Position numbers and translations under genes: made by a program. The notes beneath the pieces are model-generated. The model worked only from the letters and a program-made list of their open reading frames with translations, had not been told where the DNA came from and did not search any database. 64,000 nt of DNA from Ceratodon purpureus (lineage: Eukaryota > Streptophyta > Bryopsida > Pseudoditrichales > Ditrichaceae): assembly GCA_014871385.1 (NCBI GenBank), contig CM026426.1, positions 2,801,852 to 2,865,851 on the forward strand. The letters are read 5' to 3'. Shown in pieces: positions 1 to 34,022 of the stretch (its first letter is position 1; every line of letters begins with the position of its first letter).

Positions 1-1932
1 GCGACCCGGACGGACCAGTACGTGCAGGATAGGTTCCACGGGAAGATCCATAGGAACAATGGATACGAGATAGACGCCTGCAAGGATAGGAGGCAGAGGC
101 AGGTCTTAGCTTTCCTCGTTCCGATCCTGTATCCGCAGAAACCGGCACAAGTCACCATTACGGTCGGGAATACCATCCTCGGAGCGTATACAGGAGAACG
201 CCCGGTGAATTGGGCTGCACTCATGGCGGAAGTGGTGCAGAAGATGGTTCCGACGATCGGAAAGAAGCCGACCCCACTCTCCCCTTACCTCTTTCACCTT
301 TACCATACGTATGACTTGCTGACCGATAAGGAGGACGAGACGTACACGCACGCGAAGAACTGCCTCAACTTCTCGGAGATTCCGCCCGGAATGGAACCCG
401 ATCCGAGAGGTGAGCCCTCTGATACAACGGACTCGGAAGATGAGGACGATACGAGGGAGGTTCCGAACCCTGGCGCTGCTAGGGCTCAGTCCAGATTGAG
501 ATCGGAGCAGCCAGCGTCACGACATGCGGAACCGTCTACGGCCCGGGGAGATCCGGAACGGAGAGAGGTCAGTTCCGATCGGGGATTTCCGGTGGACCTG
601 TTTCGGGGGATTCGGGAGGAGACTCATCGGGCTCAAGCTTCTTACGATCGGATCGAAACCCTGTTCCGGAGGGTCTGTACAGCGCTGGGAGGGTGCTTAC
701 CGGAAGAGGTGATCCGAGAAGTGGAGTTGTTGAAGGATGCCCCAACTCTCCGGAGTGAGAAGAAGCGGCTGGAGCTTCAGTTGCAGGAGTTGACGAAGGA
801 GCTGGCGGCGAAGAGTGACGAGATCCGTAAGTTCCACGCCGAGCAGGAGGAGACTTTGGGGGAGCTTCGGAAGTTGGTGGGAAGTTCGGGAGCGGTAATC
901 AACAAGGCCCGGCTGTTCGATGAGAACGTAGTGCAGCCGGCTGATTTCGAGGACAAGCAGAAGATCATCAAGATCCTCTCCAAATGCGAGCACTCGATGA
1001 ACATGATCCTGAAGAAGGTCCGGCAGCTACTCAATCCGAGCACCGGAAGTCCCAGTCTCGTAGGCGCTGGCCGGGGTCTTCCGCTCCCCGGATCGCCCTC
1101 TCGTGCCGTGGTAGGAGAATCTCGCGGGGTTGGGTTCCGAACCCCGATAGGGAGTAACCTCCAAGCAGCAGAACAGATGACGGTCGAAGAGGCCGCCATG
1201 ACAAATCGGACGATTGCGGAGGCGATCCGGGAAGTCCAAGCACAGGCGGCGTCACCCGGAACCAGTACAGTCCAGCAGAGCTGCGCGATCCCCACCGGAC
1301 AGGTGCAAGTGACCGGAACGACAGTCACCGAGAGGCGGATCGAGGAGAGGACGGTTTCGGAACAGGTGACTCGGACCGTGCCGCCGGATGTTCTTCCACG
1401 ACTCGGAGATGAAGTGATCATAGCGAAGTACCGAGGGGAGGCAGCGGGACCGGAATGGGGACGACCTATTTCACCACCCGGACGGACCCGAGTAACTCAG
1501 GAGGGGGGATTGACCCCTTCACCCACAGCCAAGACCGGAACGGTGACGCCTACTCCCACCGGAACGCCAGCAGCAGGTTCTCCTCCGAACACTGCCGGTG
1601 AGTTCCGGAGGTTGCGGAAAAGGAAGGAACCGATTACAATTTCCGAGTCCGACTCAGAGACACATGGGAGCTCTCCGGTCAGGACCACCGGAACTGAAAC
1701 TCAGACTCCGACGTCCGGAACTCCTCCCGCACATATGATTCCGAAATCGCCCAATTCTCCCAAACCCCGGATCGTTACCCGGTTGTCCTTGGAGGCTCAG
1801 GAGAGAGAGTCAAAGGCGGAACGGAGTGCTAGGCGCAAGGCGGCACGAGCAGCAGGGGCGGGCGGATCAGAGCCGCGGGTGACCAGGTCGAAGGATCGCG
1901 AGCAGGAGAGCCACAAGAAGACAAAGAAGTGA
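1..1932 (+). CDS. LTR-encoded accessory protein of element A (5' LTR copy, start outside window)
   Basis: The frame is open from base 1. The matching region of the 3' LTR shows that the protein starts about 90 codons earlier with a true ATG, so the GTG at 22 is not the start. In order one sees the end of an N-terminal globular domain (to about nt 350), an acidic Ser/Asp/Glu linker (about 400-470), a predicted coiled coil rich in Leu, Glu and Lys (about 700-1020), a Ser/Thr/Pro-rich stretch, and a basic tail ending in HKKTKK that could be a nuclear signal. No transmembrane segment, zinc knuckle or enzyme motif is visible. By layout it resembles the accessory ORFs after pol in families B and C. 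Function is unknown. An ORF this long inside an LTR is unusual, and this copy is intact across the visible part. Confidence 0.85.
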   Translation, partial: ATRTDQYVQDRFHGKIHRNNGYEIDACKDRRQRQVLAFLVPILYPQKPAQVTITVGNTILGAYTGERPVNWAALMAEVVQKMVPTIGKKPTPLSPYLFHLYHTYDLLTDKEDETYTHAKNCLNFSEIPPGMEPDPRGEPSDTTDSEDEDDTREVPNPGAARAQSRLRSEQPASRHAEPSTARGDPERREVSSDRGFPVDLFRGIREETHRAQASYDRIETLFRRVCTALGGCLPEEVIREVELLKDAPTLRSEKKRLELQLQELTKELAAKSDEIRKFHAEQEETLGELRKLVGSSGAVINKARLFDENVVQPADFEDKQKIIKILSKCEHSMNMILKKVRQLLNPSTGSPSLVGAGRGLPLPGSPSRAVVGESRGVGFRTPIGSNLQAAEQMTVEEAAMTNRTIAEAIREVQAQAASPGTSTVQQSCAIPTGQVQVTGTTVTERRIEERTVSEQVTRTVPPDVLPRLGDEVIIAKYRGEAAGPEWGRPISPPGRTRVTQEGGLTPSPTAKTGTVTPTPTGTPAAGSPPNTAGEFRRLRKRKEPITISESDSETHGSSPVRTTGTETQTPTSGTPPAHMIPKSPNSPKPRIVTRLSLEAQERESKAERSARRKAARAAGAGGSEPRVTRSKDREQESHKKTKK

Positions 1933-2866
1933 TAGATTCCTCTCACTGCCACTTGTCGTAACTTTCCGGATTTATAGGAGTAGATTCCGGATCGGAGGAT
2001 CCGTTCTTGTCGTAAAGTAAATTTCTAGGTAGATAGTTAGGGATTAGGGTTTTGATTGAACTGCCGGCGCCGCCACTTTTGTGGAAGCCCCTGCTTACTT
2101 AAACCGGGCAGGCGATGTGATCCGGGTCTTCGTTTTGCATGTTTTCCCCCTATAATCCTTATCAGTAAAGTATTTGTGTTTCGTAAGTACTGTGCGTGAT
2201 TTCCCGCTAAGTGTGAATGATCCGGGAAGGATATGAGAGTTCCGCTGTAGCTCGGATAGGAAGGTGATGGGAGTTGCAACGAGACCCGAACCGGAAAGGA
2301 AATGGGATTGAGCGGAAAGATTTAGCGGATTGTCGTAGGAGTGAAGCCTCACTGTTCCGCCCTCAAATCAACCTCATACGGAATAGCCGTCGCTAGGGTC
2401 GAAGCGGATCGAGAACTACTTGGTCGGGCTCCCTGAACTTCTGAAGAGGTTCCGTGCACAGTGAGAGGGGGAGTCGGAACGTGGTACGGGTCGCCTAGGG
2501 ATAATCGGATCCTGGTTCTCCCAGATCCGGATTGGTTTGTCGTTGTAGTCCCACGGATCGGAGAGGATCGTTTGTGTGACCTGCTGGCCAGAGTACTCTA
2601 GGACAGTTGTGAGACGGTAACTGATCCGAGACGTTGGGGTTTGTGAACGAAACACCTCATGAGAGAAGAATAGAGAAGGAGATAGTTCGGGAGTTACGTT
2701 CCGAAGACACTATCCGAGCAGTGGCAAGGCTCGGAACGATTAGAAGTAACTGCTTGGTGAAACACTATTGAATCCCTGGACGATACTCGGAACCTAGTGA
2801 CAGTATGGAAGTTTACGCTCGATTAGAGCGCTATCCGGATGTTAGTTGCGTTTCCGTGTTCCGACA
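1..2866 (+). repeat. 5' LTR of element A (truncated by window start)
   Basis: Direct repeat of 9712-12582. It ends TTCCGACA just before the primer site. About 790 bp of its left end (U3 and the promoter, judged from the 3' LTR) lie outside the window. It holds the end of the LTR ORF (1-1932) followed by 934 bp without a convincing ORF (1933-2866). Confidence 0.93.
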
Positions 2867-2876
2867 CGTAAAAATC

Positions 2877-2893
2877 TGGCGCCGCTGCCGGGG
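2877..2893 (+). other. Primer-binding site of element A, tRNA-Asp type
   Basis: TGGCGCCGCTGCCGGGG lies 10 bp after the LTR end. It closely resembles the TGGCGCCGTTGCCGGGG site used by plant Tat/Athila-type elements, which is complementary to the 3' end of tRNA-Asp (family knowledge). There is one difference from that consensus. Confidence 0.8.
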
Positions 2894-3064
2894 ATTCGAT
2901 AAGCTGCGAACCAGGTGGATACTCGGAAGATAAGTGAGCGCAGATTTGAAGAAAAGTGGAGTCAGACCGTGAAGGCTTCATTCAGGTGGATATGCGGTAG
3001 GCGGAAGTCTTACGTGCAGATCTTGCCTTCCGAGGAATCGGAAGAAGAATTCCCAATCTCTTCC

Positions 3065-4735
3065 ATGGTTGGGGCGCAACCGGAAGAGTTAGGGGGAAGA
3101 AGATCCACTCGGTTGCTACAGAAGAGGGGAAGAGTTTTGGTACACGATCTACCGGGAACGAATCTACTTCCCCGGATCCAGACTGCTGTAGAACGAGAAG
3201 GAGACGTAATCGTGGTGTCGTTGGCCGGAACCTCCACAGCCGGAGCAGGTACAGCTCCAGATCCGGAAGAAGAAGAGGTCGTAGCTGACGAAGTCGGAGC
3301 CGACGCAAGAGTAGAAGAGGAGACCGAGGAAGAGGAAGAAGACGAGGAAGACAATCCAATGGCACCCTCTACCCGACTGAAGTACAACAGATTCAAAGGG
3401 GACGGAAGTCAAGACGTGGACGAATGGCTCTGTGAGTTCGAATCCATCGCTCTGGCCAATCAGGAAGATCCGGATGCGAAGAGGAGGATATTCCAGGGTC
3501 TTCTGAAGGGAGAAGCTCTCCAATGGTACCAAGACGTTCCGGAACGTACACGTAACGACTGGACCAGTTTCGTGACCTTGTTCCGACGTACGTTCCGTGA
3601 GGCCGGAGGAGAAGCTCGCGCACTCGGAAAGCTGAGTCGGATGACGATGAGATCTTCCGAGTCAGTACGGAAGTACAGTCAGAGGGTAAAGGCGCTCATA
3701 CAGAAACTCACTACGGCCATAGCCCCGAGTGTACAAGTGGAATGGTTTGTCGCCGGATTCCCAGAGGAGATGGGGTTTCAGATCCGACAAACCCGTCCCG
3801 CCACACTTCAGGAAGCCGTGGAAGCGGCTCAGAACTATGAGAACTCGGCCCAATCTCTACGGAAGTCTCTGAAGCATACCGAGAAGCGGGGTAAGAAAAT
3901 CCGGAAGGAGAGAGAGCGCCGGCGGAGGCACGAATCCTCTTCGGAAGATTCCGACTCTACCAGTAAGAGCGATTCCACTTCATCCAGTTCCGATCAGTCG
4001 GAAGAGGACTCCAGGGGAGCCTCGAAACGCCGAGGGGGCTCCAGTAGAGACTCCCGGCCTAGACGGAACCGAGAGTTGATCAAGGTGAAGGTGGAAGATG
4101 ACGATTCTCGGAAGGTCATGAAGGAGATGAAGGAGATCCGAGAATCGATTGCCGAACTCAACGTCCACCTTTCCGAGAATCGGAAACCTCGTAAGATGAT
4201 TCCCACCAGCAGAGCTAATGTGTGGTGTGCTAACTGCGGAAAGCAAGGACATTATCCTCCGGAGTGTACTGAACCCCGCCAGAAACGTATCCACTACGTC
4301 CATCCGGAAGAAGAAGTATACTTTGCCTATCCGGAAGAGGAAGAGTTTCAGATGGAGGAGTACCAACCTGTATATCAGGTTCAGACCACTTACGGACGGG
4401 GGAAGGCTCCGATCCAGATAGCCCGTCCTCCCGCCGGATACCGGATCCCACAGAACGTTCCGGGTAGGCCGATGTACCCAAAGCCGACCCACGGGTACTG
4501 CTTCAACTGTGGGAGCCCGGATCATTACGCACCTAACTGTCCGTTTGAGCGACAGGGGCAGGGAGCACCGCGGATCCTTCCGTGCCAAAATTGCGGAGAG
4601 TACGGTCATACGGCTCCTCAGTGTGCCAAACCGGCACAACCCCGCCCGACTTTCAAACAGGTGGAGGTCCCTCCGAGAGAGATGACTGGGCTAAACTACG
4701 GTCACTCGGGTGGGATAGAGAATCCGGACAAATGA
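3065..4735 (+). CDS. gag: Element A gag
   Basis: Structural Gag polyprotein. The frame is open from about 2903, but the first ATG is at 3065; an ATG at 3359, at the start of the conserved capsid-type domain, is the other possible start. Features in order are an acidic N-terminal region, a retrotransposon Gag domain (about nt 3359-3880, with DEWLCEFE and LKGEALQWY motifs), a Lys/Arg/Ser-rich region (about 3880-4130), and three CCHC zinc knuckles of the form CX2CX4HX4C near nt 4228, 4501 and 4588, expected to bind RNA. Three knuckles is more than the one or two typical of plant Ty3 elements. The ORF ends with UGA and is followed in the same frame by pol. Confidence 0.9.
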   Translation: MVGAQPEELGGRRSTRLLQKRGRVLVHDLPGTNLLPRIQTAVEREGDVIVVSLAGTSTAGAGTAPDPEEEEVVADEVGADARVEEETEEEEEDEEDNPMAPSTRLKYNRFKGDGSQDVDEWLCEFESIALANQEDPDAKRRIFQGLLKGEALQWYQDVPERTRNDWTSFVTLFRRTFREAGGEARALGKLSRMTMRSSESVRKYSQRVKALIQKLTTAIAPSVQVEWFVAGFPEEMGFQIRQTRPATLQEAVEAAQNYENSAQSLRKSLKHTEKRGKKIRKERERRRRHESSSEDSDSTSKSDSTSSSSDQSEEDSRGASKRRGGSSRDSRPRRNRELIKVKVEDDDSRKVMKEMKEIRESIAELNVHLSENRKPRKMIPTSRANVWCANCGKQGHYPPECTEPRQKRIHYVHPEEEVYFAYPEEEEFQMEEYQPVYQVQTTYGRGKAPIQIARPPAGYRIPQNVPGRPMYPKPTHGYCFNCGSPDHYAPNCPFERQGQGAPRILPCQNCGEYGHTAPQCAKPAQPRPTFKQVEVPPREMTGLNYGHSGGIENPDK

Positions 4736-7700
4736 CGGTTCGTGACGGAACTACAGGAGGGCGCGGAAGTACCAGTACACAGAGTATCAACCCGTAGTTC
4801 CGCTAGAGAACGTGCCCAGGAACCGGAGCTGCCGAAATCCCGGAAGACCAGGAGGAGGGTAAGATCCAGGAGAGTGGATTCGGATTCGGGATCCGAACCC
4901 TCTACGGTAACCAGAGCTTTACCAGCAGAAAATGACCGTCCAAGAGCTGAAAATGGGGTGGAAGGAGGGAACCTCCCGGAAGATATCAGTGAGGAAGTTC
5001 GGAAAGAACTCACGGATCCCACTGCCCGGAAGATCACCAAGCCTTCGGTCCGGTTTGATGACGTTCCGGTGGTTATTCCTTCCGATCCCAGAGTGGACGA
5101 GTATGACATTCTTGGGGACATCAAATCCCTCAAGGCAAATGTCACGATTGGACAGTTGCTCCATGACAATGTGAATTACCAGAAGGTAATCCGAGAGGCA
5201 TGGACGAAGCGGAGGCGCCGAGGGGTGAAGCTTCCGTCTGTAGCTACTAACTTCTTACAGGTTGAGGATCACGGAGCCCCGGAACTGACGGTGCTAATAG
5301 AAGGATGTGCTATACCGAAAGTTCCGGTAGATGGAGGATCCGGTGTGAACCTGATGCTGGAAGATACGGCCTTTGAACTCGGATACACCTCGTTCGAATC
5401 CACCGATCAAGTGTTACGAATGGCGGATCAATCTAGAGTTAAACCCGTGGGAAGGTTGTCCCAGGTTCCGACCACGATCGGAGAGGTAACATACCTCTTG
5501 AATTTCGTGATAATCCGAGTTAGTACGGGCCGTCCCTTTCCGATGTTGTTGGGAAGACCCTGGCTATACATGGCACGAGTCCTCGTTGATTGGGGAGCCA
5601 AGGAGTTCGTACTCGGAAAAACCAATCAGCGGATTCCGTGGAAGATGGATGGATATCTAGGGGAAACCAGTGGCTCGGATGGGTATACGTCTGATTGGTC
5701 CGACCCGGAAGAGGAGGATGACGAAGTATTTAGTTATTTCGTGAATCAGTTCTCGGAAGTTACCGAGGATGACTTCCGATTTCATAATCCGATCAGTGAG
5801 CAACCCCAACCATCATCGGAGCACGTGAAATTCCCGGTACCGGAGGATCGCTCTCTCGGAGAAGGAAGTGTTCCACTCTCAGCCGAATGGTTCCGACAAC
5901 AGGTCGAGGAGGGAAACCTGCCCGCCATGGGTCTCGATCCGGACACTCCTGTCCGGGTGTGGAGCGCATGGACGGATCAGGGAGAGGAACAGGAATCGGA
6001 ACGAGTCAAGAACGTTGTGAAACTATCCGACTATGAGAAGGTGGAGGTGGCCCCCGGAAAGACATTTCTGCTAGGGCGAAGCATGAGCAAGGAGCAGAGA
6101 AAGGAGTATGTGGATTTACTAAAGGAATATTTAGACGTATTCGCTTGGTCACCATCCGACCTCAAGGGGATACCTCCGGAACTCGGCCAACATCATATAG
6201 ACTTGGTTGACGGATCAGTTCCGGTCAGACAACGCCAGTACAGGCTCAACCCGAAGTACTCTCTGATGGTGAAGGAAGAGATCGATAGCCTCCTGAAAGC
6301 CGGATTCATTTATCCAGTAAATAATTCCGAGTGGGTATCGCCCATAGTCGTCGTCCCGAAGAAGGTTGGCTCGGATGGGAAAGTCAAGATCCGAGTCTGT
6401 CAAGATTTTCGGAAACTGAATGCGGCCACAAAGAAGGATTACTTTCCATTACCTTTTACGGACATTATCCTCGATCACGTGGCAGGGCAGGAGTGCTACA
6501 GCTTTCTCGATGGATTTTCCGGTTACAATCAGGTGTCGATCCGGGAAGAAGATCAGCTGAAGACGACCTTCACCACGGAATGGGGGACGTTCGCCTTCAA
6601 CAGAATGCCCTTCGGACTGTGTAACGCTCCCGGAACATTCCAAAGGCTGATGGTGGATATTTTCCGAGATTTCTTGAGGCATTTTCTAGAAGTCTTCATC
6701 GATGACTTCGCGGTGTTCAGTAAGTGGAAGGAACATCTCGAGTACCTCCGAAGGACCTTCCAGAGGTGCAGGGAAACCGGACTGAAATTACACCCCGGAA
6801 AATGTTTTATGGGGATGATTTCCGGAATTCTTCTCGGGCACATCGTAAGTCGGAACGGGTTGGAAGTCGATTCGGATAAGGTACGAGCTATCCTCATTCT
6901 AGTGTCTCCCACCAACGTCCGAGAGGTCCGGGGATTCCTAGGATGCGTCGGATATTACAGGAGGTTTATTATTGCGTATGTCAAATTGGCAGCCCCATTA
7001 ACGGAACTGTTGAAGAAGGAAGAAGAATTTTTGTGGACGGAACGGAGACAGCAGGCGTTCGAGGAACTGAAGAAGGCCCTGACCACCGCTCCGATCCTAT
7101 CAGCACCGGATTGGTCGAAGGAATTCCATGTGACAATCGACGCTTCCGGGTGGTGCCTAGGGGCGATTCTGTGGCAGCAAGGGGAGGATCGGAAGGAGCA
7201 CCCGATCTATTATGCTAGCAGGCAGATGAGCCTTGCGGAACGGAAATATACTACCACTGAACGGGAAGCCTTGGCGGTAGTTTACGCCTGCAAGAAGTTC
7301 CGACACTACCTTCTCGGATACAAGATCGTGTTCCATACGGATCATGACTCCCTGAAGTATTTGGTGAACAAACCGGATCTCTCAGGGCGTATTGCACGAT
7401 GGATCTTGCTGCTCCAGGAATTCAACTACGAGGTAGTAGTGAAACCGGGTAAGGCCAATGCCAACGCTGACTACCTGTCAAGGATGCGAGGCCCGGAAGC
7501 AGTTTCGGACATCACCGCCACGTTTCCGGATGAGTTTCCGGAAGAGGCGGAGGTATTTCATATTTCCGGAACGGAGAACTCCGATTATTCGGAAATTATC
7601 CAGTATTTAACCCAACGGAGGTACCCGGAGGGATTTACGCGGGAGGAGAAGATGGTATTTCAGAATACAGTAGCTCCTTTCACACTGATCCGCGGAGTAC

Positions 7701-8887
7701 TTTTCCGGATGGGACCGGATGATGTGTTACGCAGGTGCCTCGAGGAATCCGAAAGAAGGCAGGTCATGAGGGCCTTACACGCCGGACCCTCGGGCGGCCA
7801 TTTCGCCTCGGAAACAACCATCAAGCGGATCCGATCAGCCGGATATTGGTGGCCTTACCTCTCCCGGGACGTGAAGGAATTTGTAGGGCAGTGCGACCAA
7901 TGTCAAAGAACCGGGGCACCCTCGTTCCGGAACCACTGGCCCCTCACTCCCATTATTCCCTTGGCTCCGTTTGAAAAATGGGGGATAGACTTTATCGGAC
8001 CGATCAATCCGGTCACAGCCCGGAAGAGGAGATACATTATCCTGGCTACGGATTATGCGACCAGATGGGTAGAGGCAAGAGCAACGGTGAAGAATGACGC
8101 CGCGGCCGCAGCCACATTTCTCTTTGAAGAAATAATGATGAGATTTGGACATCCGTTAGAACTGGTGAGTGACCGGGGAAAACATTTCCTAAACGATGTC
8201 ATCATCAATATCACGGAACGGTATCTCATCAAGCACCGGAAGACGACCCCTTATAATCCGAAAGCGAATGGACTGACGGAACGAGCTAATGGCATCGTCG
8301 GAAAGATTCTGAACAAGATGGTCTCGGCTCATAAGACGGATTGGGATCGGAAGCTCCCTTCAGCTGTACACGCCTACAATACCAGCGAGAAGAAAACCAT
8401 GGGTAAGAGTCCTTTCTTCCTAGTTTTTGGACAATCCGCAGTTCACGGAGTGGAGTTGGAGGTAGAAACCTTACGGGTTATGGCTGCCCGTCACGGGACG
8501 AGAGTCGAGGATCCGGGGTACCGGATCGTGGCATTACAGGATCTGGAAGAAGTCAGGAGAGGCGCTCTACAGCAGGCCGTAGATGTCCAGGCAAAACGTA
8601 AGGAGACCTACGACAAAAGAATTCCTAAGGACAATAAGGTGATAGAAGGAGGCTTGGTGCTCTTATACGATAATCGGCACCAAAAGTTTCCGGGAAAGTT
8701 ACATACGAGATGGATGGGACCTTACCGGGTTACGCGGATCTTTGAGAACGGATCATTACAACTGGCGGACCTCCAGGGAAATAGCTTCGAAACCCGGGTG
8801 AACGGATCCCGAGTGAAAAATTACAACCCTGAGGAGTTCACAGACACCGAAGGAAGCGAAAGCCCGGAAGGGGAGGAAGAAGAATAG
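4736..8887 (+). CDS. pol: Element A pol polyprotein: protease, reverse transcriptase, RNase H, integrase
   Basis: Replication and integration enzymes. A protease with a DGGSG active-site motif lies near nt 5330, followed by the LLGRPWL signature at about 5545. RT spans about 6290-6900 with its catalytic box as FIDD at 6695-6706. RNase H runs from about 7126 (TIDASGW, then HTDHDSLKYL). Integrase has an HHCC finger at about 7771-7910 and the DDE residues at about 7987, 8171 and 8279. A GPY/F-type C-terminal module (WMGPYRV) follows and there is no chromodomain. The block is in the same frame as gag, without an ATG of its own near the start. The codon after the gag stop is CGG, and UGA-CGG resembles the type II read-through context known from plant RNA viruses, so Gag-Pol may be made by read-through (inference). 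The ORF looks whole. Confidence 0.93.
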   Translation, partial: RFVTELQEGAEVPVHRVSTRSSARERAQEPELPKSRKTRRRVRSRRVDSDSGSEPSTVTRALPAENDRPRAENGVEGGNLPEDISEEVRKELTDPTARKITKPSVRFDDVPVVIPSDPRVDEYDILGDIKSLKANVTIGQLLHDNVNYQKVIREAWTKRRRRGVKLPSVATNFLQVEDHGAPELTVLIEGCAIPKVPVDGGSGVNLMLEDTAFELGYTSFESTDQVLRMADQSRVKPVGRLSQVPTTIGEVTYLLNFVIIRVSTGRPFPMLLGRPWLYMARVLVDWGAKEFVLGKTNQRIPWKMDGYLGETSGSDGYTSDWSDPEEEDDEVFSYFVNQFSEVTEDDFRFHNPISEQPQPSSEHVKFPVPEDRSLGEGSVPLSAEWFRQQVEEGNLPAMGLDPDTPVRVWSAWTDQGEEQESERVKNVVKLSDYEKVEVAPGKTFLLGRSMSKEQRKEYVDLLKEYLDVFAWSPSDLKGIPPELGQHHIDLVDGSVPVRQRQYRLNPKYSLMVKEEIDSLLKAGFIYPVNNSEWVSPIVVVPKKVGSDGKVKIRVCQDFRKLNAATKKDYFPLPFTDIILDHVAGQECYSFLDGFSGYNQVSIREEDQLKTTFTTEWGTFAFNRMPFGLCNAPGTFQRLMVDIFRDFLRHFLEVFIDDFAVFSKWKEHLEYLRRTFQRCRETGLKLHPGKCFMGMISGILLGHIVSRNGLEVDSDKVRAILILVSPTNVREVRGFLGCVGYYRRFIIAYVKLAAPLTELLKKEEEFLWTERRQQAFEELKKALTTAPILSAPDWSKEFHVTIDASGWCLGAILWQQGEDRKEHPIYYASRQMSLAERKYTTTEREALAVVYACKKFRHYLLGYKIVFHTDHDSLKYLVNKPDLSGRIARWILLLQEFNYEVVVKPGKANANADYLSRMRGPEAVSDITATFPDEFPEEAEVFHISGTENSDYSEIIQYLTQRRYPEGFTREEKMVFQNTVAPFTLIRGVLFRMGPDDVLRRCLEESERRQVMRALHAGPSGGHFASETTIKRIRSAGYWWPYLSRDVKEFVGQCDQCQRTGAPSFRNHWPLTPIIPLAPFEKWGIDFIGPINPVTARKRRYIILATDYATRWVEARATVKNDAAAAATFLFEEIMMRFGHPLELVSDRGKHFLNDVIINITERYLIKHRKTTPYNPKANGLTERANGIVGKILNKMVSAHKTDWDRKLPSAVHAYNTSEKKTMGKSPFFLVFGQSAVHGVELEVETLRVMAARHGTRVEDPGYRIVALQDLEEVRRGALQQAVDVQAKRKETYDKRIPKDNKVIEGGLVLLYDNRHQKFPGKLHTRWMGPYRVTRIFENGSLQLADLQGNSFETRVNGSRVKNYNPEEFTDTEGSESPEGEEEE

Positions 8888-8910
8888 TGTTCGCGGGGAC
8901 TCTCACATTT

Positions 8911-8923
8911 GAAAATGGGGTAA
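8911..8923 (+). other. Polypurine tract of element A
   Basis: GAAAATGGGGTAA sits directly before the 3' LTR start TGTGGG. It parallels the AAAAGGGGGATAA before the 3' LTR of element B, which supports the LTR boundary chosen here. Confidence 0.65.
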
Positions 8924-9288
8924 TGTGGGATCCGAGACACTCAGAATAAACCGGAAGAGCCCCAGCCGGCGTAAGTATTCCATTTATTTTTCATTTTTTT
9001 GGTTAATTAGGTAGAAACTGGCCAGACACTAGCAGCATTAGCAGTTAACGCAAATCGGATACTCCAGAAACGATAAAACAGTTAACATAGGAAGTGTTCC
9101 CGGAACCTGGATTCCGGAAACTCGGAAGATAAGATACGGAACGGGTGGACGATCCGAGTACTGACCGTTACTGTAACCGCGTCAAGGATCCGAAGCGACG
9201 CGGAAGTCATCATGACTCGGATAGGCGTTTACCCCGGTACGTTGGCGGCTGCAATGACGGGCCGCCACAGCGTTTATTATGCCTGGGG

Positions 9289-9296
9289 TATATAAG
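9289..9296 (+). promoter_or_regulatory. TATA box of the element A LTR promoter
   Basis: TATATAAG in GGGGTATATAAGCGAGG lies 365 bp into the LTR. Transcription would start about 30 bp downstream, which puts the ATG of the LTR ORF (9448) roughly 125 nt into the transcript. If so, the genomic RNA started in the 5' LTR has the accessory ORF, not gag, as its first ORF. Confidence 0.6.
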
Positions 9297-9447
9297 CGAG
9301 GGTGTTAGGGTTTGGAGTTCCTTTTTGCGAACTGGAAGTAGAGAGTGAAAGAGCGGTGAGGTGTCCTTGTCTTTTCCGATTCACCGGCAGTTGGATTGCC
9401 GGGTTTCTTGCTGTCGGATCGTAGAGGGAGAGAAGTGAGGAGTAGAG

Positions 9448-11646
9448 ATGGCGCGCGTACAGTGTTGCGTCCTTAGCCCCGGAACTCCAGTGAAGGAATC
9501 GGATATGGAGGAACTGATCACCGACCTCACTCGGATGAGGTGTGAGGGATTGTTGGCACGGCCGTGGTTACTGAAAAGTGAGGTGATGGTGAGGGAGGTC
9601 CTGGAGGGTCCGGACAACCGGTGGGATAATACGGTCCGAGGCAAGCCCACGCTGTGGAATGCGGAACAGTGGGCGGAAGCTTACGGTTTCGAGCAGAAGG
9701 GACTCCTTTGGGCGACCCGGACGGACCAGTACGTGCAGGATAGGTTCCACGGGAAGATCCATAGGAACAATGGATACGAGATAGACGCCTGCAAGGATAG
9801 GAGGCAGAGGCAGGTCTTAGCTTTCCTCGTTCCGATCCTGTATCCGCAAGAAAACCGGCACAAGTCACCATTACGGTCGGGAATACCATCCTCGGAGCGT
9901 ATACAGGAGAACGCCCGGTGAATTGGGCTGCACTCATGGCGGAAGTGGTGCAGAAGATGGTTCCGACGATCGGAAAGAAGCCGACCCCACTCTCCCCTTA
10001 CCTCTTTCACCTTTACCATACGTATGACTTGCTGACCGATAAGGAGGACGAGACGTACACGCACGCGAAGAACTGCCTCAACTTCTCGGAGATTCCGCCC
10101 GGAATGGAACCCGATCCGAGAGGTGAGCCCTCTGATACAACGGACTCGGAAGATGAGGACGATACGAGGGAGGTTCCGAACCCTGGCGCTGCTAGGGCTC
10201 AGTCCAGATTGAGATCGGAGCAGCCAGCGTCACGACATGCGGAACCGTCTACGGCCCGGGGAGATCCGGAACGGAGAGAGGTCAGTTCCGATCGGGGATT
10301 TCCGGTGGACCTGTTTCGGGGGATTCGGGAGGAGACTCATCGGGCTCAAGCTTCTTACGATCGGATCGAAACCCTGTTCCGGAGGGTCTGTACAGCGCTG
10401 GGAGGGTGCTTACCGGAAGAGGTGATCCGAGAAGTGGAGTTGTTGAAGGATGCCCCAACTCTCCGGAGTGAGAAGAAGCGGCTGGAGCTTCAGTTGCAGG
10501 AGTTGACGAAGGAGCTGGCGGCGAAGAGTGACGAGATCCGTAAGTTCCACGCCGAGCAGGAGGAGACTTTGGGGGAGCTTCGGAAGTTGGTGGGAAGTTC
10601 GGGAGCGGTAATCAACAAGGCCCGGCTGTTCGATGAGAACGTAGTGCAGCCGGCTGATTTCGAGGACAAGCAGAAGATCATCAAGATCCTCTCCAAATGC
10701 GAGCACTCGATGAACATGATCCTGAAGAAGGTCCGGCAAGCTACTCAATCCGAGCACCGGAAGTCCCAGTCTCGTAGGCGCTGGCCGGGGTCTTCCGCTC
10801 CCCGGATCGCCCTCTCGTGCCGTGGTAGGAGAATCTCGCGGGGTTGGGTTCCGAACCCCGATAGGGAGTAACCTCCAAGCAGCAGAACAGATGACGGTCG
10901 AAGAGGCCGCCATGACAAATCGGACGATTGCGGAGGCGATCCGGGAAGTCCAAGCACAGGCGGCGTCACCCGGAACCAGTACAGTCCAGCAGAGCTGCGC
11001 GATCCCCACCGGACAGGTGCAAGTGACCGGAACGACAGTCACCGAGAGGCGGATCGAGGAGAGGACGGTTTCGGAACAGGTGACTCGGACCGTGCCGCCG
11101 GATGTTCTTCCACGACTCGGAGATGAAGTGATCATAGCGAAGTACCGAGGGGAGGCAGCGGGACCGGAATGGGGACGACCTATTTCACCACCCGGACGGA
11201 CCCGAGTAACTCAGGAGGGGGGATTGACCCCTTCACCCACAGCCAAGACCGGAACGGTGACGCCTACTCCCACCGGAACGCCAGCAGCAGGTTCTCCTCC
11301 GAACACTGCCGGTGAGTTCCGGAGGTTGCGGAAAAGGAAGGAACCGATTACAATTTCCGAGTCCGACTCAGAGACACATGGGAGCTCTCCGGTCAGGACC
11401 ACCGGAACTGAAACTCAGACTCCGACGTCCGGAACTCCTCCCGCACATATGATTCCGAAATCGCCCAATTCTCCCAAACCCCGGATCGTTACCCGGTTGT
11501 CCTTGGAGGCTCAGGAGAGAGAGTCAAAGGCGGAACGGAGTGCTAGGCGCAAGGCGGCACGAGCAGCAGGGGCGGGCGGATCAGAGCCGCGGGTGACCAG
11601 GTCGAAGGATCGCGAGCAGGAGAGCCACAAGAAGACAAAGAAGTGA
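9448..11646 (+). pseudogene. LTR-encoded accessory protein of element A (3' LTR copy)
   Basis: This is the second copy of the ORF seen at 1-1932. It includes the 5' part missing there: it begins MARVQCCVLSPGTPVKESD at a true ATG and then carries a globular domain of about 190 residues. The full product is about 730 residues: globular domain, acidic linker, coiled coil, Ser/Thr/Pro-rich region, basic tail. This copy has about two or three small breaks and the 5' copy none in the visible part. No close family is recognised. The N-terminal domain is weakly reminiscent of the putative plant transposon protein domain seen in ORFs of plant Ty3 elements (inference by eye). Confidence 0.75.
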
Positions 11647-12582
11647 TAGATTCCTCTCACTGCCACTTGTCGTAACTTTCCGGATTTATAGGAGTAGATT
11701 CCGGATCGGAGGATCCGTTCTTGTCGTAAAGTAAATTTCTAGGTAGATAGTTAGGGATTAGGGTTTTGATTGAACTGCCGGCGCCGCCACTTTTGTGGAA
11801 GCCCCTGCTTACTTAAACCGGGCAGGCGATGTGATCCGGGTCTTCGTTTTGCATGTTTTCCCCCTATAATCCTTATCAGTAAAGTATTTGTGTTTCGTAA
11901 GTACTGTGCGTGATTTCCCGCTAAGTGTGAATGATCCGGGAAGGATATGAGAGTTCCGCTGTAGCTCGGATAGGAAGGTGATGGGAGTTGCAACGAGACC
12001 CGAACCGGAAAGGAAATGGGATTGAGCGGAAAGATTTAGCGGATTGTCGTAGGAGTGAAGCCTCACTGTTCCGCCCTCAAATCAACCTCATACGGAATAG
12101 CCGTCGCTAGGGTCGAAGCGGATCGAGAACTACTTGGTCGGGCTCCCTGAACTTCTGAAGAGGTTCCGTGCACAGTGAGAGGGGGAGTCGGAACGTGGTA
12201 CGGGTCGCCTAGGGATAATCGGATCCTGGTTCTCCCAGATCCGGATTGGTTTGTCGTTGTAGTCCCACGGATCGGAGAGGATCGTTTGTGTGACCTGCTG
12301 GCCAGAGTACTCTAGGACAGTTTGTGAGACGGTAACTGATCCGAGACGTTGGGGTTTGTGAACGAAACACCTCATGAGAGAAGAATAGAGAAGGATAGAT
12401 AGTTCGGGAGTTACGTTCCGAAGACACTATCCGAGCAGTGGCAAGGCTCGGAACGATTAGAAGTAACTGCTTGGTGAAACACTATTGAATCCCTGGACGA
12501 TACTCGGAACCTAGTGACAGTACGAAGTTTACGCTCGATTAGAGCGCTATCCGGATGTTAGTTGCGTTTCCGTGTTCCGACA

Positions 12583-13775
12583 GCTACAGCCGTCAAGAGC
12601 CTGGTGCATGTCAAGGCAACTCTAGCCCTTTTGGTAGATGTGGCCAACTTGTGCGCCATCTACTAAGAGTCTTTGACGCGCCAAATGGATCCAGCTTGGA
12701 AGGCCATTGTTTTGTGTATGCACGACCAAACAGAGGTGATGGAAGGAACCTTGGCAAAGATGAGGAAACTGGTGGTGACCCTTGAGAAGAATAGAGCTGG
12801 TCAATTGGCTCCACCTGTTCCACGAGCAGACCACGAGGCACTTAGGACTCGGGAAGCGCCAGCACTGGATGTGGGTCCGGACCAGGTACCACCAGTAGAG
12901 ACTCCGATCCAGTCGGTCATCCGATCACCTGCGCGACCGGAATAGAGACGGCCGTTAGCAGATCTTCTTCCGGATACTCTGGACATTTACCACGGTCTTC
13001 CCATTCCGGAAGGGGTGGAGGCCTTTAACCCGGAGGGCATCAACCTAGATTGGAGTCACGGGCCACTTGTAGAATCGGCCTTCGTTCCTGTATAAGGAAC
13101 CCCGTCTCCTGAACAAGCGCAAACGGTCATCAATGCAATTTTGATGGCTACACGGTCTCCCTCCCCCGCTGTTAAGGCAGGTCGGGTTTGAAAGGCCGAC
13201 GACCGACAAGTGCCAGAAACTCGAGGAGCAGGTCCATTGGTAAAATGGTTGAAGAAAGGCGGCCAGAAGAAAGGAAGATCGAAAGGGTCCCGGAGTAGCC
13301 CAAACTTTGGGAAGGAGTAAGGATGGAATAGAAACCGGATATAATGGCAACGACTAACGATGGGGCTGAGTTGCACTCGGCTGTCAATCTAGATAGTTAG
13401 CGGGAGTAACTAGGAGCAGAAGGAGGCCACCGGTCCGGGATTTGCAAGGTCCAAGATCCAGAAATTTTGGATTTCAGTTGGCCACTTGTCTACTGGAGGC
13501 TCGGTAGGAAGTAGTACTTAAGTCAGGAGTTTTTTCCAAGGCTTGGGCCTTGTTTTTGTACGGCATTTTTTATTATGCAACTGAAAATATTCTTTTGGAT
13601 TTGTTGTGTAGAACGGTTGGCGGACAGGTCCATTGCAGTAATGGTATGATGGTATTGTTGCCTCTGATAGAGTTTTGGGAGAGTGTTGAACAGTGTGACA
13701 GTTAAGAGATCGCCCGGAGAGAGTGGAAAGGTGTCAAGCGCCGAGTGTTGACATTTTCCAACGTCCGGAAGGAGC
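12583..13775 (+). pseudogene. Remnant of an accessory-type retrotransposon ORF and unassigned flank
   Basis: Element A is inserted at the left edge. Between about 12600 and 13330 there is a worn coding stretch with ATG candidates at 12673 and 12712. It shows a short Leu/Glu/Lys-rich helix (MEGTLAKMRKLVVTLEKN), a Pro-rich linker, a segment reading NPEGINLDWSHG, and a basic end (KKGGQKKGRSKG). Composition and order resemble the accessory ORFs of families A-C, so it is probably the 3' end of a further degraded Ty3 element. It is clearly broken. Nothing is recognised in 13340-13775. Confidence 0.4.
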
Positions 13776-14552
13776 TGTTAGTCGGGGATTTAAGGTAGTA
13801 GAGTAGGAGAGCAGTAAAATTGCAATTATTGGGGAGGCTGTAAAATGTTAAGTTACTGTCCTGTCCTGTAGTAACTCTGTTTGGACGAAAACTACTTGTT
13901 TTGGATGAAAACTGCCAAATGGATGAAAACTATAAGATGGATGAAGTCTGGTGGTTAGATGAAGTCTAGTGGCCGGATGAGAACTGTTTGCAGTTAGGGT
14001 TTTGGGGGTGACGGCTAGGGTTTTGGATGGGGTTGTGAGGGAGGGAACTGCAAAGGTCATTCTTTCTCTCCCCATTGGAGTTTAGAAGCTCTCAGATTGT
14101 AGTATGTGTAGAATGTATTGTAGGACTGTAGAAGAGATGCTGCCAGGACAGTTTGAGGATCCTGGAGGGTCCAAGGAGTAGTGCCAGTAGGGAGTAGGAT
14201 GATGTACAGATCTATAGTGAGTAAAGGAAAGGAATTGATTACTTTTGTATGTACATGTATGGAGTTCCAGAAATGAGTGGTTGAAGGACCATGTTAGTCA
14301 ATTTGTCTAGTGAGTCTTGTAGATCTCGTGTTTCAATTAGTGGGTATTGTAGATCAGACTAAGGAGAGTAGAAATATGTATCAAATCTAAGAATATACCT
14401 CAAGAATTTTTGTAGATCTAAGTTGGCAATTTCAGATCTAAGGGCAGGATTTGGGGCAGTTTCTGGCGGGCAGTACAGTGAATTTTGCAGGATTTCAGAG
14501 AGATATGGTTAGTATTCATTTTAAAAGGAGTAAGGAAAAAACTCCTTTCACA
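13776..14552 (+). repeat. 5' LTR of element B'
   Basis: 777 bp, starting TGTTAGTCGG and ending TTTCACA, diverged from the 807-bp LTR of element B. It keeps the short tandem GGATGAAAACTG-type repeats (about 13885-13985) seen in the B LTRs. Confidence 0.88.
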
Positions 14553-14631
14553 TTGGCGACCATGAAAAAGTTCACACCATGTAGCTCTTGCTGCACACAC
14601 CTAGGTTTAGGTTTAGGATTTAATACTCGAT

Positions 14632-15369
14632 GGGGCGGAAGCACAATAAAGTGGACCAAAAAAGTGCTTAGCTATTTGCCAGTTTCAGCCCTTTTGCAAA
14701 AATTGCACAAAAATCATGGAAAGATGTAATTGAAGTCAACTCTTTTTGCTAATATGGATTTTCAACTTGTTCTTCTACAACTTGGAAAAGTTTTGTGCAA
14801 AGTAGACACTTTAAACTTATCGTATAGAGGCTTTAAATCCAAGCAAAGTGAATGCAATCATTTGAAAAAGTGACTATAAAAGAATCAAAAACTATCAACA
14901 GATCACTTTTAGTTAAGTAATGCCCTCTGTGTGTTTAAGAGGTATTCTAAAATAATCAATTCATATACTCACTAATTGGTTTAGGGTTCCAAAAGTACCG
15001 CAAGAATGTTTTTTGAGAGGGTGACTTCCGCGGTACTTTTTGTGCGTTTTTTTTCCCTGAACATTGTTTTTTAAATTTGAAAAAAAATTCTCTAATGACA
15101 ATAGAAGGCACCAAATGAAGAAATTAAGACTTCAGAAAAGTTCATTTTTATGATTTTGAACTACTGATCAAATTAAGTTTCAATTGAGGATGATCTTTTT
15201 ACGATGATGTGTGTAAGGTGCCTTATGACACCCTAGAAAGTGACTAAAATGCTCAAAAACTACACCAAAATGCTCAAAATCAGCTTTGAGCTTTAAAAAA
15301 CAGCACACTTCATATTCACTTCTTAGTAATCACATTTTGCACTTTGTGGTCCTCTTTATTGTGTTCGCC
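14632..15369. mobile_element. MITE-like non-autonomous DNA transposon, copy 1
   Basis: 738 bp with inverted termini. The left end reads GGGGCGGAAGCACAATAAAG; the right end is its imperfect reverse complement (CTTTATTGTGTTCGCC). The inverted repeat continues inward as GTGGACCA..AAAGTGC. The whole unit is found in reverse orientation at 29388-30124. It interrupts the leader of B', where family B reads straight through. No ORF beyond chance length. No exact target duplication could be matched for this copy. The superfamily is not assigned. Confidence 0.75.
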
Positions 15370-16370
15370 ATTGATCCGTACTACTCCATGGATGATAGGT
15401 ACTGTGGGGATTTGGGGTCTATGAAGAGCAAATTTGACAATTGCAGTGCCAGATCTGCAACAGTGGCAGTTAGAGTGACCGAATCTCTGACAGTGAAGGT
15501 TACAATGACCAGATCTGCGACCCATCAGTGACGGCAAGACCGGTGCAGTCATGACTAGGCGGGAGTAGTCAAGCGAGAAGAGGCGCATTCCAAGAGCTAA
15601 GGGTAGCTCTATAGCAAAAGGGGGATAGTCAGCGAGATCTAGGTAAGCTATTGTTTCCTCTGGATCTGAGGTTGCATTGCAAAGAACAGTAGACGGAATG
15701 TTGGACTAGCAGTGAACAGATGGAACAGTCAGTAAAAAAGTTGTAGATCTACTGTCTAGGTGAACTTACAGACAGTAAAAATGACGTAGTAAAAATTGAG
15801 GTAAAAAAAGAGCAGTAAAAAATTACGCTAAAAATGGGGCAGTAAAAATGAACACCATGAGTAAATGAGGAAAGGAATCTAGGGACCAGTGATAAGAGTC
15901 TGGAAAGGAAATTGAGCCAGTAAATCACTAAACTTAGATAAAACAGTTAAACTCGACTAGGAGAGTGTAAAACTAGACCAGATTCACTGAAAAAATATAG
16001 TGGCAGGACTGTGAGGACCATGAAAGACCTTTTGGAAAAAATGTAAATCTGTATTGCTTTGAAATTTGTTAGAATTCTAGACTAAGGACGAACTTGAAAA
16101 CCTAAAAGGCAGTTAGGACCAACCTAAGTAGGAGCAGTAGCTATTGATAGATCCACAGAGGACCAGATTGAGGTGGCAGAAGGATGTATGGACAGGGACC
16201 AGGAGTATGAAGTACTAGCACGCAAGGACTAGAGGAAGACTGGGAGAGAGATCCACAGTACCTACCCAAGAGATCACCTACAGGGGAAGACTCGACTTAC
16301 TGGAGAAGTAGACAGACCAAAAGACCACCAGCAGAAAGGACGAGGAGGGAGAAGCAGTAACCGTCCTATC

Positions 16371-19300
16371 ATGAAAGGCGGCCACCAAGGGAGGGACAAG
16401 GAAGACTTGGCTAGGAGATAAGCAGCAAAGAGGCAGGCTAGATACGGGCTCAGGAAGCAGCAGAGAGCAGCTGTTGAACTAGGAAGAAACATGGGAGGGC
16501 AACCCATCCTTGAGGAAAGCATTGCCAAAGGAAAGACTAGGGACTTGATTAACATGGACCTAGTGGGCGGAAATTCAAGTTAGGAGACATTGCTTGGAAT
16601 AAGCAGGAGGACAGGATCAGCTAAGGGCGAACCTCAACCTAGTTTCAAGGACAGGTAGGAGAATGAGGAGATCAAGAGGTATGATGGCTCACTGCCATCA
16701 CCGAGGACCAGTAGAAGGGAGTTTCCAAGACCAAGAGGTGGAGACATCCAATATAGTTGGAATCCTCAACTCGAGACACTAGTAGCATATGACCAGTTTC
16801 AAGAAGAGGAGAGGAGAAGCACTAGCCGACCTAATACACCAAGACCAAGAATACAGACACCAGGAGACTTGGGGGAGACGCTGGAGACACTGAAGAAGAA
16901 ACTGGACCAGGTCAGGAGTGAAGACAGGGCCTCAGGAGAAGCAATACCCACTTCAGACCCGACCAAAACCAGCAGACAGGGAGAGCTCACCACAAGGAAC
17001 GAGACAGTATAGTTCGTCCAGGACCAGTTCGAAGGACTAGAGCAGGATGAAGAAGAGGAAGATAATAGGTAGCTGGAGCAGATCAAGGCCTGACAGCAGG
17101 CCAAGGGGCAAGCGGAGCAGGCTAGAAGGGACGAGCAGACCATGGAAGAGCTGTACAAACACCAGATGGAGGAATTAGGACAATCCACAAGGTTCAAGGA
17201 AACCATGCACGCTTGGGAGCAGAAAACAGGGAAGAACTCCAAATGAAGGAAGCCATGAGGTTATGGCAGTAGACCAAGAGGATAGAGGAGCAGGAGCAGG
17301 AGAGACAGAGGCAGGAAGCCCTTAGATCCTGGCAGGAGGCTCAAAGGAGGAAAGAAATCAAGCATGCAGTAGTAGGAGAAGCAGGAGGCCATGGAGTAGG
17401 ACATGTTACGCCACAAGGCTATGCGCCTTTAGTACGAGGCCTAGAGACAGGAGGACTAGAAGAAGAAGCAGTAGAAGTGAGAAGAAGCAACCCGCCAATC
17501 TACCATGTACAGGGGGCAGGAAGTATTGAGGGAAGAAAGCCAAAAGCTACAGGCCCAGCAGAAGGAGAACCTATGGCCAGGATATGAATCGCGTGAGGTA
17601 CAGGGTAGAAGGTCTGGTCCAGCAAGATCAGTAGAGGTGATGGGGGTACCAGTACCAGCAATTGCTATACTGCAGGGACCAGAAGAGAGCCATTTCCACC
17701 ACCAGACAAGACCAACAGGTCCATCAGGAGGAGGAGGAGCATCAACGACCTACATGGATCACCTGGCTGGTGATCTATACCAACCAGAGGCACCCCAGCT
17801 AGTGTACTGACTACGTGGGGGAGCAGATGTGGGAGCAGGAGCCACCAATGTAGGGACACAATTCCAATGACCAAGAGAAGCAGTTGGAGGAACATCACAT
17901 GGGACCAAACCACTAGTGGGAATTGGAGTACATGTGGCCACAACAGCCAGCAGTTATCCAGAACAGCCGGTACCACCAGTTTACCCACCTGTTTTATGAC
18001 CAGGTATACCACAAGTACACCCACTAGATGGAAGACCTGGGGTATAACTCCAGTGTACCCCCCAGTTGGAAGACCAGGCGTACCAACAGTTTATCCACCA
18101 GTTGGAGGACCAGTTTACCTACGAGTTGGAGGACCAGTTTACCCACCTGTATCAGGACCAGTCAGTGTCGCATATAGGAAGCCACTGCCATACTCCAAGT
18201 ACAAAGAAGGTACAAATCTTGATGCTTATATTCGTCAATTTGAGCGCACCTTGTGGCACATTGGGGAAACTAATGAGCAGGTTATTATGAGCCTGATGGG
18301 TATTTACCTTACTAGTCAAGGTCAAGGCGTGGTATGAGAATTTTTCTGGAGAGTCATCTCTAGTGCTCATGGGAGGAGTTCAAGGCAGCCTTCAGGAAAA
18401 GATATAGGGACCAGACAACAGATGAAGTAGTCTACAGGGAGTTGAAGTCCTTCAAGCATCAGACAGGGAGAAGGTGCAGGATTACTATGACAGGTTTATG
18501 ACCCTCATCAAGTGTTCGCAGTCAGACCCTGGAGAAGGATTTCTAATTACTAATTTCAGGGCAGGATTCCTGGAGTACATCAAGATTACAATCAGTATGA
18601 CACCAGTCAAGACCCTGACAGAGTTGGTGGATGCTGCTCTGAGGTGTGAAGAAAACGACACCGATTCAAGTGGTAAGCCAACCAAGATCCAAGTTAAGAA
18701 GGTGAAGACCACTAGTAAGCCAGCAACTGTGACCAGGAAGGAACCAAGTCAAGATGCGTCTAGGCAAATCTGTGGCACATGCAAGATGTTGTGCCATGAC
18801 GATGCTAACTACTGGTACAACCCAGCAAACCAGAGGGGACTAGGTATGAAGAAAGAAGGAGAGGAATGAGTAGGGGTGAATAAGGTGTCTGCCTAAAGCC
18901 AGCAGCCACCTACAACAGTAACTACAACCAGGGGCACTAGAGGTCACCAAACACCAGTGCTGATAATGGCTAGCACGGTAGTTTCGGTGACAAGCTTGAA
19001 TGTTGCTATTTGTGTGGGGGAACATGGCAAAGAAGTTGGAAATGCCCTCTGAAGGCCCAGTGGGACCTCTTTTGAGCACAAGGGGATCAGGAAATCAAGA
19101 AACTGGTCCACCGAGTAAACAATGTGGAGATTGAGTTATTGGAGGATCCAGAGGACGAGATGAGCGTGGCTAGTATGACTAGGGCACAGAGGCGGAAGAC
19201 TGCCTCCAGTTGAAGACGAGTCCAAGGTACCAAAACCAAGGAAGGTCATAACCAGAGAAGACTGGGAGGAGGAGGAACGACTCAAGAACTCTATGCTGGA

Positions 19301-20450: not shown

Positions 20451-20459
20451 ATCCCCATA

Positions 20460-33955: not shown

Positions 33956-33958
33956 TTT

Positions 33959-33975
33959 TGGCGACCATGCTGGGG
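33959..33975 (+). other. Primer-binding site of element C
   Basis: TGGCGACCATGCTGGGG begins 3 bp after the LTR. Families B and B' share its first 11-12 bases right after their LTRs. The matching tRNA was not identified. Confidence 0.6.
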
Positions 33976-34022
33976 ATGGAATGTTGAAGTAAAATCAAAA
34001 CTCTCTTCTAAGCTGAAACACC

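What the first reader, a model, noticed from the sequence alone, without database searches (positions are those of the whole stretch)
1..12582. A retrotransposon whose LTRs encode a protein of about 730 residues
Element A carries the same long ORF in both LTRs (1-1932 and 9448-11646) and has gag and pol between them. The LTR boundaries are fixed by primer site, polypurine tract and TG...CA ends. A TATA box at 9289 in the LTR puts this ORF first on the genomic RNA. Long LTR ORFs are rare; the best known is the MMTV sag gene. Families B and C keep a similar protein after pol, so A seems to have absorbed the accessory gene into the LTR, doubling it and placing it next to the promoter.
Basis: partly seen in the sequence, partly recalled or inferred. 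Interest (0 to 1): 0.88.

Follow-up and report, generated by a model that had tools for sequence, protein, structure and literature searches.

The report
Moss retrotransposon with gene inside LTRs
A young retrotransposon family in what is probably a moss carries a whole protein-coding gene, with its own likely promoter, inside its terminal repeats, so that even an insertion worn down to a single repeat can still carry that gene.

Summary
Element A is a Ty3-type retrotransposon whose 3.65-kb LTRs contain a 731-codon ORF. The window lies in a held 362-Mb genome (probably the moss Ceratodon purpureus), so other copies could be read. Of 15 LTR pairs, 14 have matching 5-bp target-site duplications at the exact LTR ends, as do 7 of 7 solo LTRs, each with the ORF inside. 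The tandem-array objection is refuted. The ORF is intact in all 39 fetched, best-scoring LTRs; the window's own 3' copy is broken, and a wider protein search shows a few shortened copies. Polymorphic sites by codon position are 33/26/135; mean pN/pS is about 0.13. A second family (LTRs 3.8-4.2 kb) has a diverged homologue (28% identity) in the same place, so the arrangement predates family A. One element with the same primer site has no such ORF within 4.4 kb. The claim that A absorbed a gene that B and C keep after pol is not supported: no significant similarity. The protein has no Pfam match and no candidate transmembrane segment; a helical N-terminal domain, coiled coil and basic disordered tail suggest a nuclear accessory factor. 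A TATA box (39 of 39) suggests its own LTR promoter; transcript ends are unmapped.

The parts
1..2866 (+). 5' LTR of element A, its first 788 bp cut off by the window edge; ends ...TTCCGACA
   Evidence: genome copy L009 shows the full 3654-bp LTR with TSD GCTAC
1..1932 (+). LTR ORF, 5' copy: codons 89-731 and stop
2877..2894 (+). primer binding site TGGCGCCGCTGCCGGGGA, 10 nt after the LTR end (tRNA-Asp type, recalled)
   Evidence: sequence; 92 exact LTR-PBS junctions in the genome, reversed-pattern control 0
2903..4735 (+). gag: Retrotrans_gag domain and three zinc knuckles
4736..8887 (+). pol: reverse transcriptase, RNase H, integrase (Ty3 order); no chromodomain found
8911..8923 (+). polypurine tract, ...GAAAATGGGGTAA directly before the LTR
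   Evidence: GGGGTAA precedes the 3' LTR in 14 of 14 fetched pairs
8924..12582 (+). 3' LTR, TGTGGGATCC...TTCCGACA
9289..9296 (+). TATA box (within GGTATATAAG, LTR position 364-373)
   Evidence: 39 of 39 fetched LTRs keep it
9432..9442 (+). possible splice donor GAAGTGAGGAG just before the start codon (untested)
   Evidence: 38 of 39 fetched LTRs
9448..11646 (+). LTR ORF, 3' copy, broken in the window by insertions at 9848-9851 and 10738; 731 codons in the 39 fetched copies
11902..11976 (+). non-coding block without variation in 39 LTRs (LTR positions 2976-3050), next to a variable part; 5' copy at 2188-2262
12583..12587 (+). target-site duplication GCTAC; its partner lies left of the window (L009)

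Best explanation
Element A is a recently active Ty3-type LTR retrotransposon in which each LTR contains a complete accessory gene: upstream promoter region, 731-codon ORF, downstream untranslated part. SHOWN: the LTR limits, the position of the ORF, its intactness in the copies fetched, purifying selection on it, a homologue in the same place in a second family. INFERRED: the gene is transcribed from the TATA box about 160 bp upstream of its start codon, in both LTRs of an element and in solo LTRs. Because reverse transcription rebuilds both LTRs from one template, each new insertion starts with two identical copies of the gene, and recombination to a solo LTR removes gag and pol but keeps the gene. 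The product (helical N-terminal domain, acidic linker, coiled coil, long disordered region, basic tail, no membrane segment) most likely acts in the nucleus for its own family, as a regulator of LTR transcription or a counter to silencing, rather than as an envelope protein. I put the LTR-resident, selected gene at about 0.97, own-LTR-promoter expression at about 0.7 and the nuclear regulatory role at about 0.35; the number below is for the whole picture without the exact role.
For: TSDs and exact ends in 14 of 15 pairs and 7 of 7 solo LTRs. ORF intact in 39 of 39 fetched LTRs with no gap column. In the wider protein search 56 of 81 scored places show the 734-codon stop-to-stop frame of family A (my count). 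pN/pS mean 0.126 and median 0.133 over the 430 of 496 pairs of 32 distinct ORFs with pS above 0.02; by part 0.07 (codons 1-215), 0.09, 0.06 (300-440, coiled coil) and 0.20 (440-731). Polymorphic sites by codon position 33/26/135. TATA 39 of 39. Homologues at 97%, 55% and about 30% identity. Second family with the ORF in the LTR: TSD CAATT, PPT, PBS, and solo LTRs with TSDs. LTR pairs differ by 0-5 substitutions in 13 of 14 pairs compared, so the family is young. Highest 19-residue Kyte-Doolittle mean 1.14; last 60 residues net +10.
Against: No transcript, protein or localisation data. The 39 LTRs are from the 40 scored of 626 candidates, so intactness is biased upwards, and pairs of copies are not independent. 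In one search four places in family A's score range have shorter open frames (516-625 codons), so broken copies exist besides the window's own. Purifying selection may date from before solo LTRs formed, so it does not show that solo LTRs are expressed. In the second family the paired element read has a split ORF (376 + 251 codons), and selection looks weaker (pN/pS 0.20-0.39). An element with the same PBS (L057) shows no such ORF in the 4.4 kb upstream, so the gene may not be needed by every related element; that element's LTR limits were not determined. The fold model is weak overall (mean pLDDT 54) and finds no solved or viral fold, so the role is a guess.
Confidence: 0.78

Rival explanations
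1. The ORF lies in U3 of the genomic RNA. A second promoter downstream of the ORF drives gag-pol, and the ORF is made from its own upstream promoter or from the 3' LTR, as with the MMTV sag gene (recalled).
For: With the promoter at the TATA box and 3' processing after the ORF, the terminal repeat R would be about 2.5 kb and gag would lie over 3 kb behind another ORF, which is awkward for translation and strong-stop synthesis (inference). A TTAAA-like site after the ORF is kept in 36 of 39 LTRs, and a 75-nt block after it does not vary.
Against: That site lies in the most variable part of the LTR (25-nt means up to 8.9% in LTR 2776-2975), and the CCTATAATCC box there is in only 15 of 39. The upstream TATA is in 39 of 39.
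Confidence: 0.35
2. The repeat is not an LTR: a tandem array with shorter true LTRs, the ORF being an ordinary gene after pol.
For: Three pairs of LTR-PBS junctions about 9.71 kb apart exist in the genome (C1, C6, C10), so tandem arrangements do occur.
Against: TSDs flank the full 3.65-kb unit in 14 of 15 pairs and in 7 of 7 solo LTRs, with PPT and PBS at its exact ends.
Confidence: 0.01
3. A took an accessory gene that relatives such as B and C keep after pol into its LTR.
For: The A-B profile alignment is collinear over 141 columns against 7-14 in five shuffles, and the predicted helices of the aligned parts follow a similar order by eye. C's post-pol protein has a weak match to Pfam Transposase_32 (E 0.18).
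Against: hhalign probabilities 0.3% and 2.1%, not separable from controls (gag scored 2.1%). The model for B is poor (pLDDT 39.9). The LTR position is shared by two families about 28% identical, so any move predates A.
Confidence: 0.15
4. The ORF is a passenger captured from the host and not needed by the element.
For: No Pfam family. The L057 element shows none.
Against: Low pN/pS, no frame loss in 39 fetched copies, same place in two families.
Confidence: 0.05

Closest known systems
MMTV superantigen gene (sag) in the U3 of the LTR (recalled)
   Same: A long protein-coding frame wholly inside the LTR and therefore present twice per provirus.
   Different: Here the gene lies downstream of a conserved TATA box, so perhaps not in U3; the host is a plant (if the identification holds); the protein has another layout (no membrane segment, coiled coil, 731 codons); Ty3 element in which I found no env.
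Additional ORFs of plant Ty3 elements: Athila env-like, Grande gene23, RIRE2, Retand ORF4 (PMC7264820, parts 1-2 of 3 read), Ogre eORFs with plant mobile domain (PMC6317226, passages read)
   Same: Conserved extra ORF beside gag-pol in many copies, function unknown; some products nuclear.
   Different: PMC7264820 describes such ORFs in the internal region, mostly between pol and 3' LTR; the parts I read mention none inside the LTR. PMC6317226 sorts extra ORFs only by position relative to the polyprotein, so LTR ORFs could be hidden in its classes. The domains it names did not turn up in my Pfam scans of the A protein.
Element B of this window (46999-62065)
   Different: 807-bp LTR without a long ORF; extra ORFs (56916-61118) lie after pol; no significant similarity to the A protein.

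Membership tests
Ty3/gypsy LTR retrotransposon | LTRs TG...CA with target-site duplication | tested here: met
   5-bp TSD in 14 of 15 pairs
Ty3/gypsy LTR retrotransposon | PBS and PPT at the LTR borders | tested here: met
Ty3/gypsy LTR retrotransposon | gag, then RT-RNase H-integrase in that order | tested here: met
Ty3/gypsy LTR retrotransposon | aspartic protease | tested here: inconclusive
   no Pfam protease match in A's pol at E up to 1, though a stretch before RT is present
Plant OTA lineage (Athila/Tat) | no chromodomain; Tat elements have an additional RNase H | tested here: inconclusive
   no chromodomain or separate second RNase H seen by Pfam; no pol tree was built
Plant OTA lineage (Athila/Tat) | PBS type | tested here: inconclusive
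   sequence fits tRNA-Asp from memory; no tRNA gene was compared
LTR-encoded accessory gene (MMTV sag-like position) | long ORF wholly inside the LTR | tested here: met
LTR-encoded accessory gene (MMTV sag-like position) | ORF in U3 | not testable with these tools
   needs transcript ends
Env-like plant aORF | transmembrane segment | tested here: not met
   highest 19-residue hydropathy mean 1.14
Env-like plant aORF | position between pol and 3' LTR | tested here: not met
   inside the LTR
Plant mobile domain / Transposase_32 accessory proteins | Pfam match | tested here: not met

The most novel reading that the evidence does not exclude
The LTR itself is a freestanding mobile gene. Every insertion, and above all every solo LTR (usually taken as dead), stays a working source of a trans-acting family protein, so that purging by LTR recombination leaves promoter and gene behind and may even raise the ratio of regulator to gag-pol. 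In the second family, the seven full-length copies at 97% or more (L048 included) have no partner at LTR-pair spacing in the DNA search; 5 of 7 keep the 629-codon frame, and of the four that are solo LTRs with TSDs three keep it. Against it: one of the seven, L056, is preceded by a PPT-like tract and so is a 3' LTR, and expression is untested.
Probability: 0.3. Interest if true: 0.85.

Novelty: new variant of a known kind. Interest (0 to 1): 0.72.

Why it matters
Extra ORFs of plant retrotransposons are described in the internal region, and solo LTRs are normally counted as non-coding debris (the latter from general knowledge). A selected 731-codon gene that lives in the LTR of at least two families changes both points. 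It makes gene dosage rise with each insertion and survive solo-LTR formation. It also poses a concrete puzzle of how gag is translated, or where the genomic RNA starts, which long-read RNA could answer. Annotation that masks LTRs as non-coding would miss such genes.

Tried and rejected
Tandem array instead of LTR: rejected by TSDs. Chance ORF: rejected by intactness and codon-position bias. Similarity of the LTR protein to B's and C's extra ORFs: BLASTP, hhalign with shallow and deeper profiles, shuffles and unrelated controls gave nothing significant. The B domain model was too poor to compare. Pfam, PDB and viral folds gave no family. Viral contigs gave no relative of P0001. Non-coding LTR parts of family A do not align with those of the second family above shuffles. 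Literature searches for ORFs in LTRs found nothing relevant; one search listed a fungal paper that uses 'LTR ORF' in another sense (passages) and a foamy-virus paper (listing only); one search listed PMC2448423, in whose held text neither searched term occurs. One search gave the three plant papers used. Searches for the genome paper; the paper itself is not held. A count of all LTRs and solo LTRs was not obtained: the pattern search for LTR starts did not complete.
Full report
WHERE IT IS. The window is G000:C6:2801852-2865851 of a 362.5-Mb genome in 151 contigs; C6 is 110.5 Mb, the other chromosome-sized contigs from which pieces were fetched are 16-29 Mb. A review says the moss Ceratodon purpureus has U and V sex chromosomes over 100 Mb each, about 30% of a 360-Mb genome (PMC8000587, passages); C6 is 30.5%.

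ANATOMY. Element A: PBS 2877-2894, gag 2903-4735, pol 4736-8887, PPT before 8924, 3' LTR 8924-12582. The repeat 1-2866 / 9712-12582 has one mismatch and six gap openings. The 5' copy of the ORF is open; the 3' copy is frameshifted by insertions at 9848-9851 and 10738.

IS IT AN LTR? The DNA search with the ORF scored 40 of 626 candidates. I grouped the 40 rows as 15 pairs spaced about 9.71 kb and 10 single rows. I fetched 39 LTRs with flanks: 29 from the 15 pairs (the window's own 3' LTR was read from the window) and the 10 singles. They run from TGTGGG (TGTGAG in L044; start lost in L032) to CCGACA or CCAACA. TSDs agree in 14 of 15 pairs; the exception, E13, has lost the first bases of its 5' LTR. 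Of the 10 singles, 7 are solo LTRs with perfect TSDs, 2 are 5' LTRs followed by a PBS, and 1 is a 3' LTR on a short contig. The LTR is about 3654 bp. An exact pattern for LTR end plus PBS finds 92 junctions in the genome, reversed control 0; copies with changes in the pattern are missed. By my count of that list 85 have A's type of spacer (5 of them with a change), 7 have other spacers, and 30 of 92 lie on C6, about what its length predicts. Three pairs of junctions about 9.71 kb apart show occasional tandem elements.

IS IT A GENE? 39 of 39 fetched LTRs have exactly 731 codons; the window's 3' copy stops after 157. A wider protein search in the genome scored 81 of 1557 candidates. By my count 56 of the 81 show family A's 734-codon stop-to-stop frame and 4 places in the same score range have shorter frames (516, 577, 590, 625), so decayed copies exist; the rest are mainly more diverged relatives. 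Among 32 distinct ORFs, 430 of 496 pairs have pS above 0.02 and mean pN/pS 0.126. Polymorphic sites are 33, 26 and 135 at codon positions 1, 2 and 3, with no gap column. Mean diversity is 0.6, 0.5 and 3.3% at the three positions, against 1.2% in the region before the TATA, 0.8% between TATA and start codon and 1.8-4.0% after the ORF. The copies are best-scoring ones and related to each other, so this overstates certainty, but the direction is clear. LTR pairs differ by 0-5 substitutions in 13 of 14 pairs compared; E10 differs by 32. Learning of the decayed copies did not change my odds.

RELATIVES. Public protein sets hold a 97% identical 731-aa protein, a 55% identical 723-aa one and a 30% identical relative over half the length; a profile search, in which only the 7997 candidates sharing most words were scored, lists 27 proteins. 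A diverged 629-codon homologue at L048 (28% identity) sits in a 4230-bp solo LTR with TSD TTTAG. The DNA search with that ORF (40 of 94 candidates scored) lists seven full-length copies at 97% or more, L048 included, without partners at LTR-pair spacing, and one partial copy 32 kb from one of them. Of these, L052, L053 and L054 are solo LTRs with TSDs (read by eye), L051 has no TSD, L055 is unclear, and L056 is preceded by a PPT-like tract (3' LTR). The 629-codon frame is intact in L048, L051, L052, L053 and L055, broken in L054 (382 codons); L056 lacks the usual start. pN/pS among the five intact ones is 0.20-0.39, weaker than in A. A paired relative, L049/L050, has 3835-bp LTRs, TSD CAATT, PPT and the same PBS, with the ORF split into two frames of 376 and 251 codons; another pair at about 9.87 kb is on C9 (not fetched). 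So the LTR position of the gene is shared by two families. An element with the same PBS but another spacer (L057) shows no such ORF in the 4.4 kb before its PBS; its LTR limits were not determined.

THE PROTEIN. P0011 has no Pfam match at E up to 10; homologues have only weak matches, largely in the coiled-coil part. AlphaFold2: a helical N-terminal domain (17-210) and a coiled-coil region (290-432) are predicted with fair confidence in parts, the rest is mostly below pLDDT 50; mean 54.1, pTM 0.33. No PDB or viral fold reaches E 0.001. No membrane-like segment; net charge +10 in the last 60 residues.

B (LTR 807 bp, TSD GTAGC) has extra ORFs after pol at 56916-61118. They do not match A's protein significantly. 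C's post-pol ORF has a weak Transposase_32 match (E 0.18) and no significant match to A (2.1%, the same as A's gag as control). The A-B alignment is long and collinear, so a remote relation stays open.

HOW IT WORKS. The TATA box is in 39 of 39 LTRs; from it to the start codon diversity is low except for 2.7% at LTR 401-425. If it drives the genomic RNA, the ORF comes first and R would be about 2.5 kb. If a downstream start drives gag-pol, the ORF lies in U3 as in MMTV. A donor-like GTGAGG before the start codon is in 38 of 39 and could serve a spliced gag message; a GTAAGT after the ORF is in 13 of 39. None of this is tested by transcripts.

WHAT IS KNOWN. [quoted passage not shown] The survey that defines plant lineages (PMC6317226, passages) sorts extra ORFs by position relative to the polyprotein and notes LTRs up to about 5 kb, so ORFs in LTRs might be among its counts without being named. 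My searches of the open library found no plant LTR-encoded protein. Subscription papers are mostly not in that library, so absence from print is not shown. MMTV sag is recalled.

VERDICT. A real, conserved, LTR-resident gene: a new variant of the known kind 'LTR retrotransposon with an accessory ORF'.

Noticed in passing
46999-62065: Element B is nearly intact: LTRs of 807 bp, TSD GTAGC, one 2346-codon gag-pol frame and then extra frames of 954 and 445 codons (56916-61118) with many short repeats. Its extra protein has three relatives in public sets.
   Followed up: partly
13773-20451: A relative of B, about 80% identical in LTR and gag region, apparently truncated.
   Followed up: no
33447-42698: A degraded third element (C) with LTR remnants and, at 39494-40348, a post-pol frame with a weak Transposase_32 match.
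   Followed up: partly
2188-2262 and 11902-11976: A 75-nt non-coding LTR block without any variation in 39 copies, next to the most variable part of the LTR; possibly a leader or packaging element.
   Followed up: no
9848-9851, 10738, 12321, 12395, 12523: The window's two A LTRs differ almost only by small insertions or deletions, unlike the 14 other pairs (substitutions only, apart from one indel in E13), which suggests local assembly error in the 3' LTR.
   Followed up: partly
L049 and L048: The LTRs of these two second-family members are 83% identical in their 3' half but 63% in the 5' half, which hints at recombination between families.
   Followed up: no
L027 and L042: The 3' LTRs on contigs C67 and C120 have the same TSD (GCAGA), so these small contigs may be duplicates.
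   Followed up: no
L044: A solo LTR whose fetched surroundings also hold two further LTR fragments in the opposite orientation.
   Followed up: no
15046-15369 and 29390-29713: Inverted repeat of 324 nt, 85% complementary, 14 kb apart.
   Followed up: no
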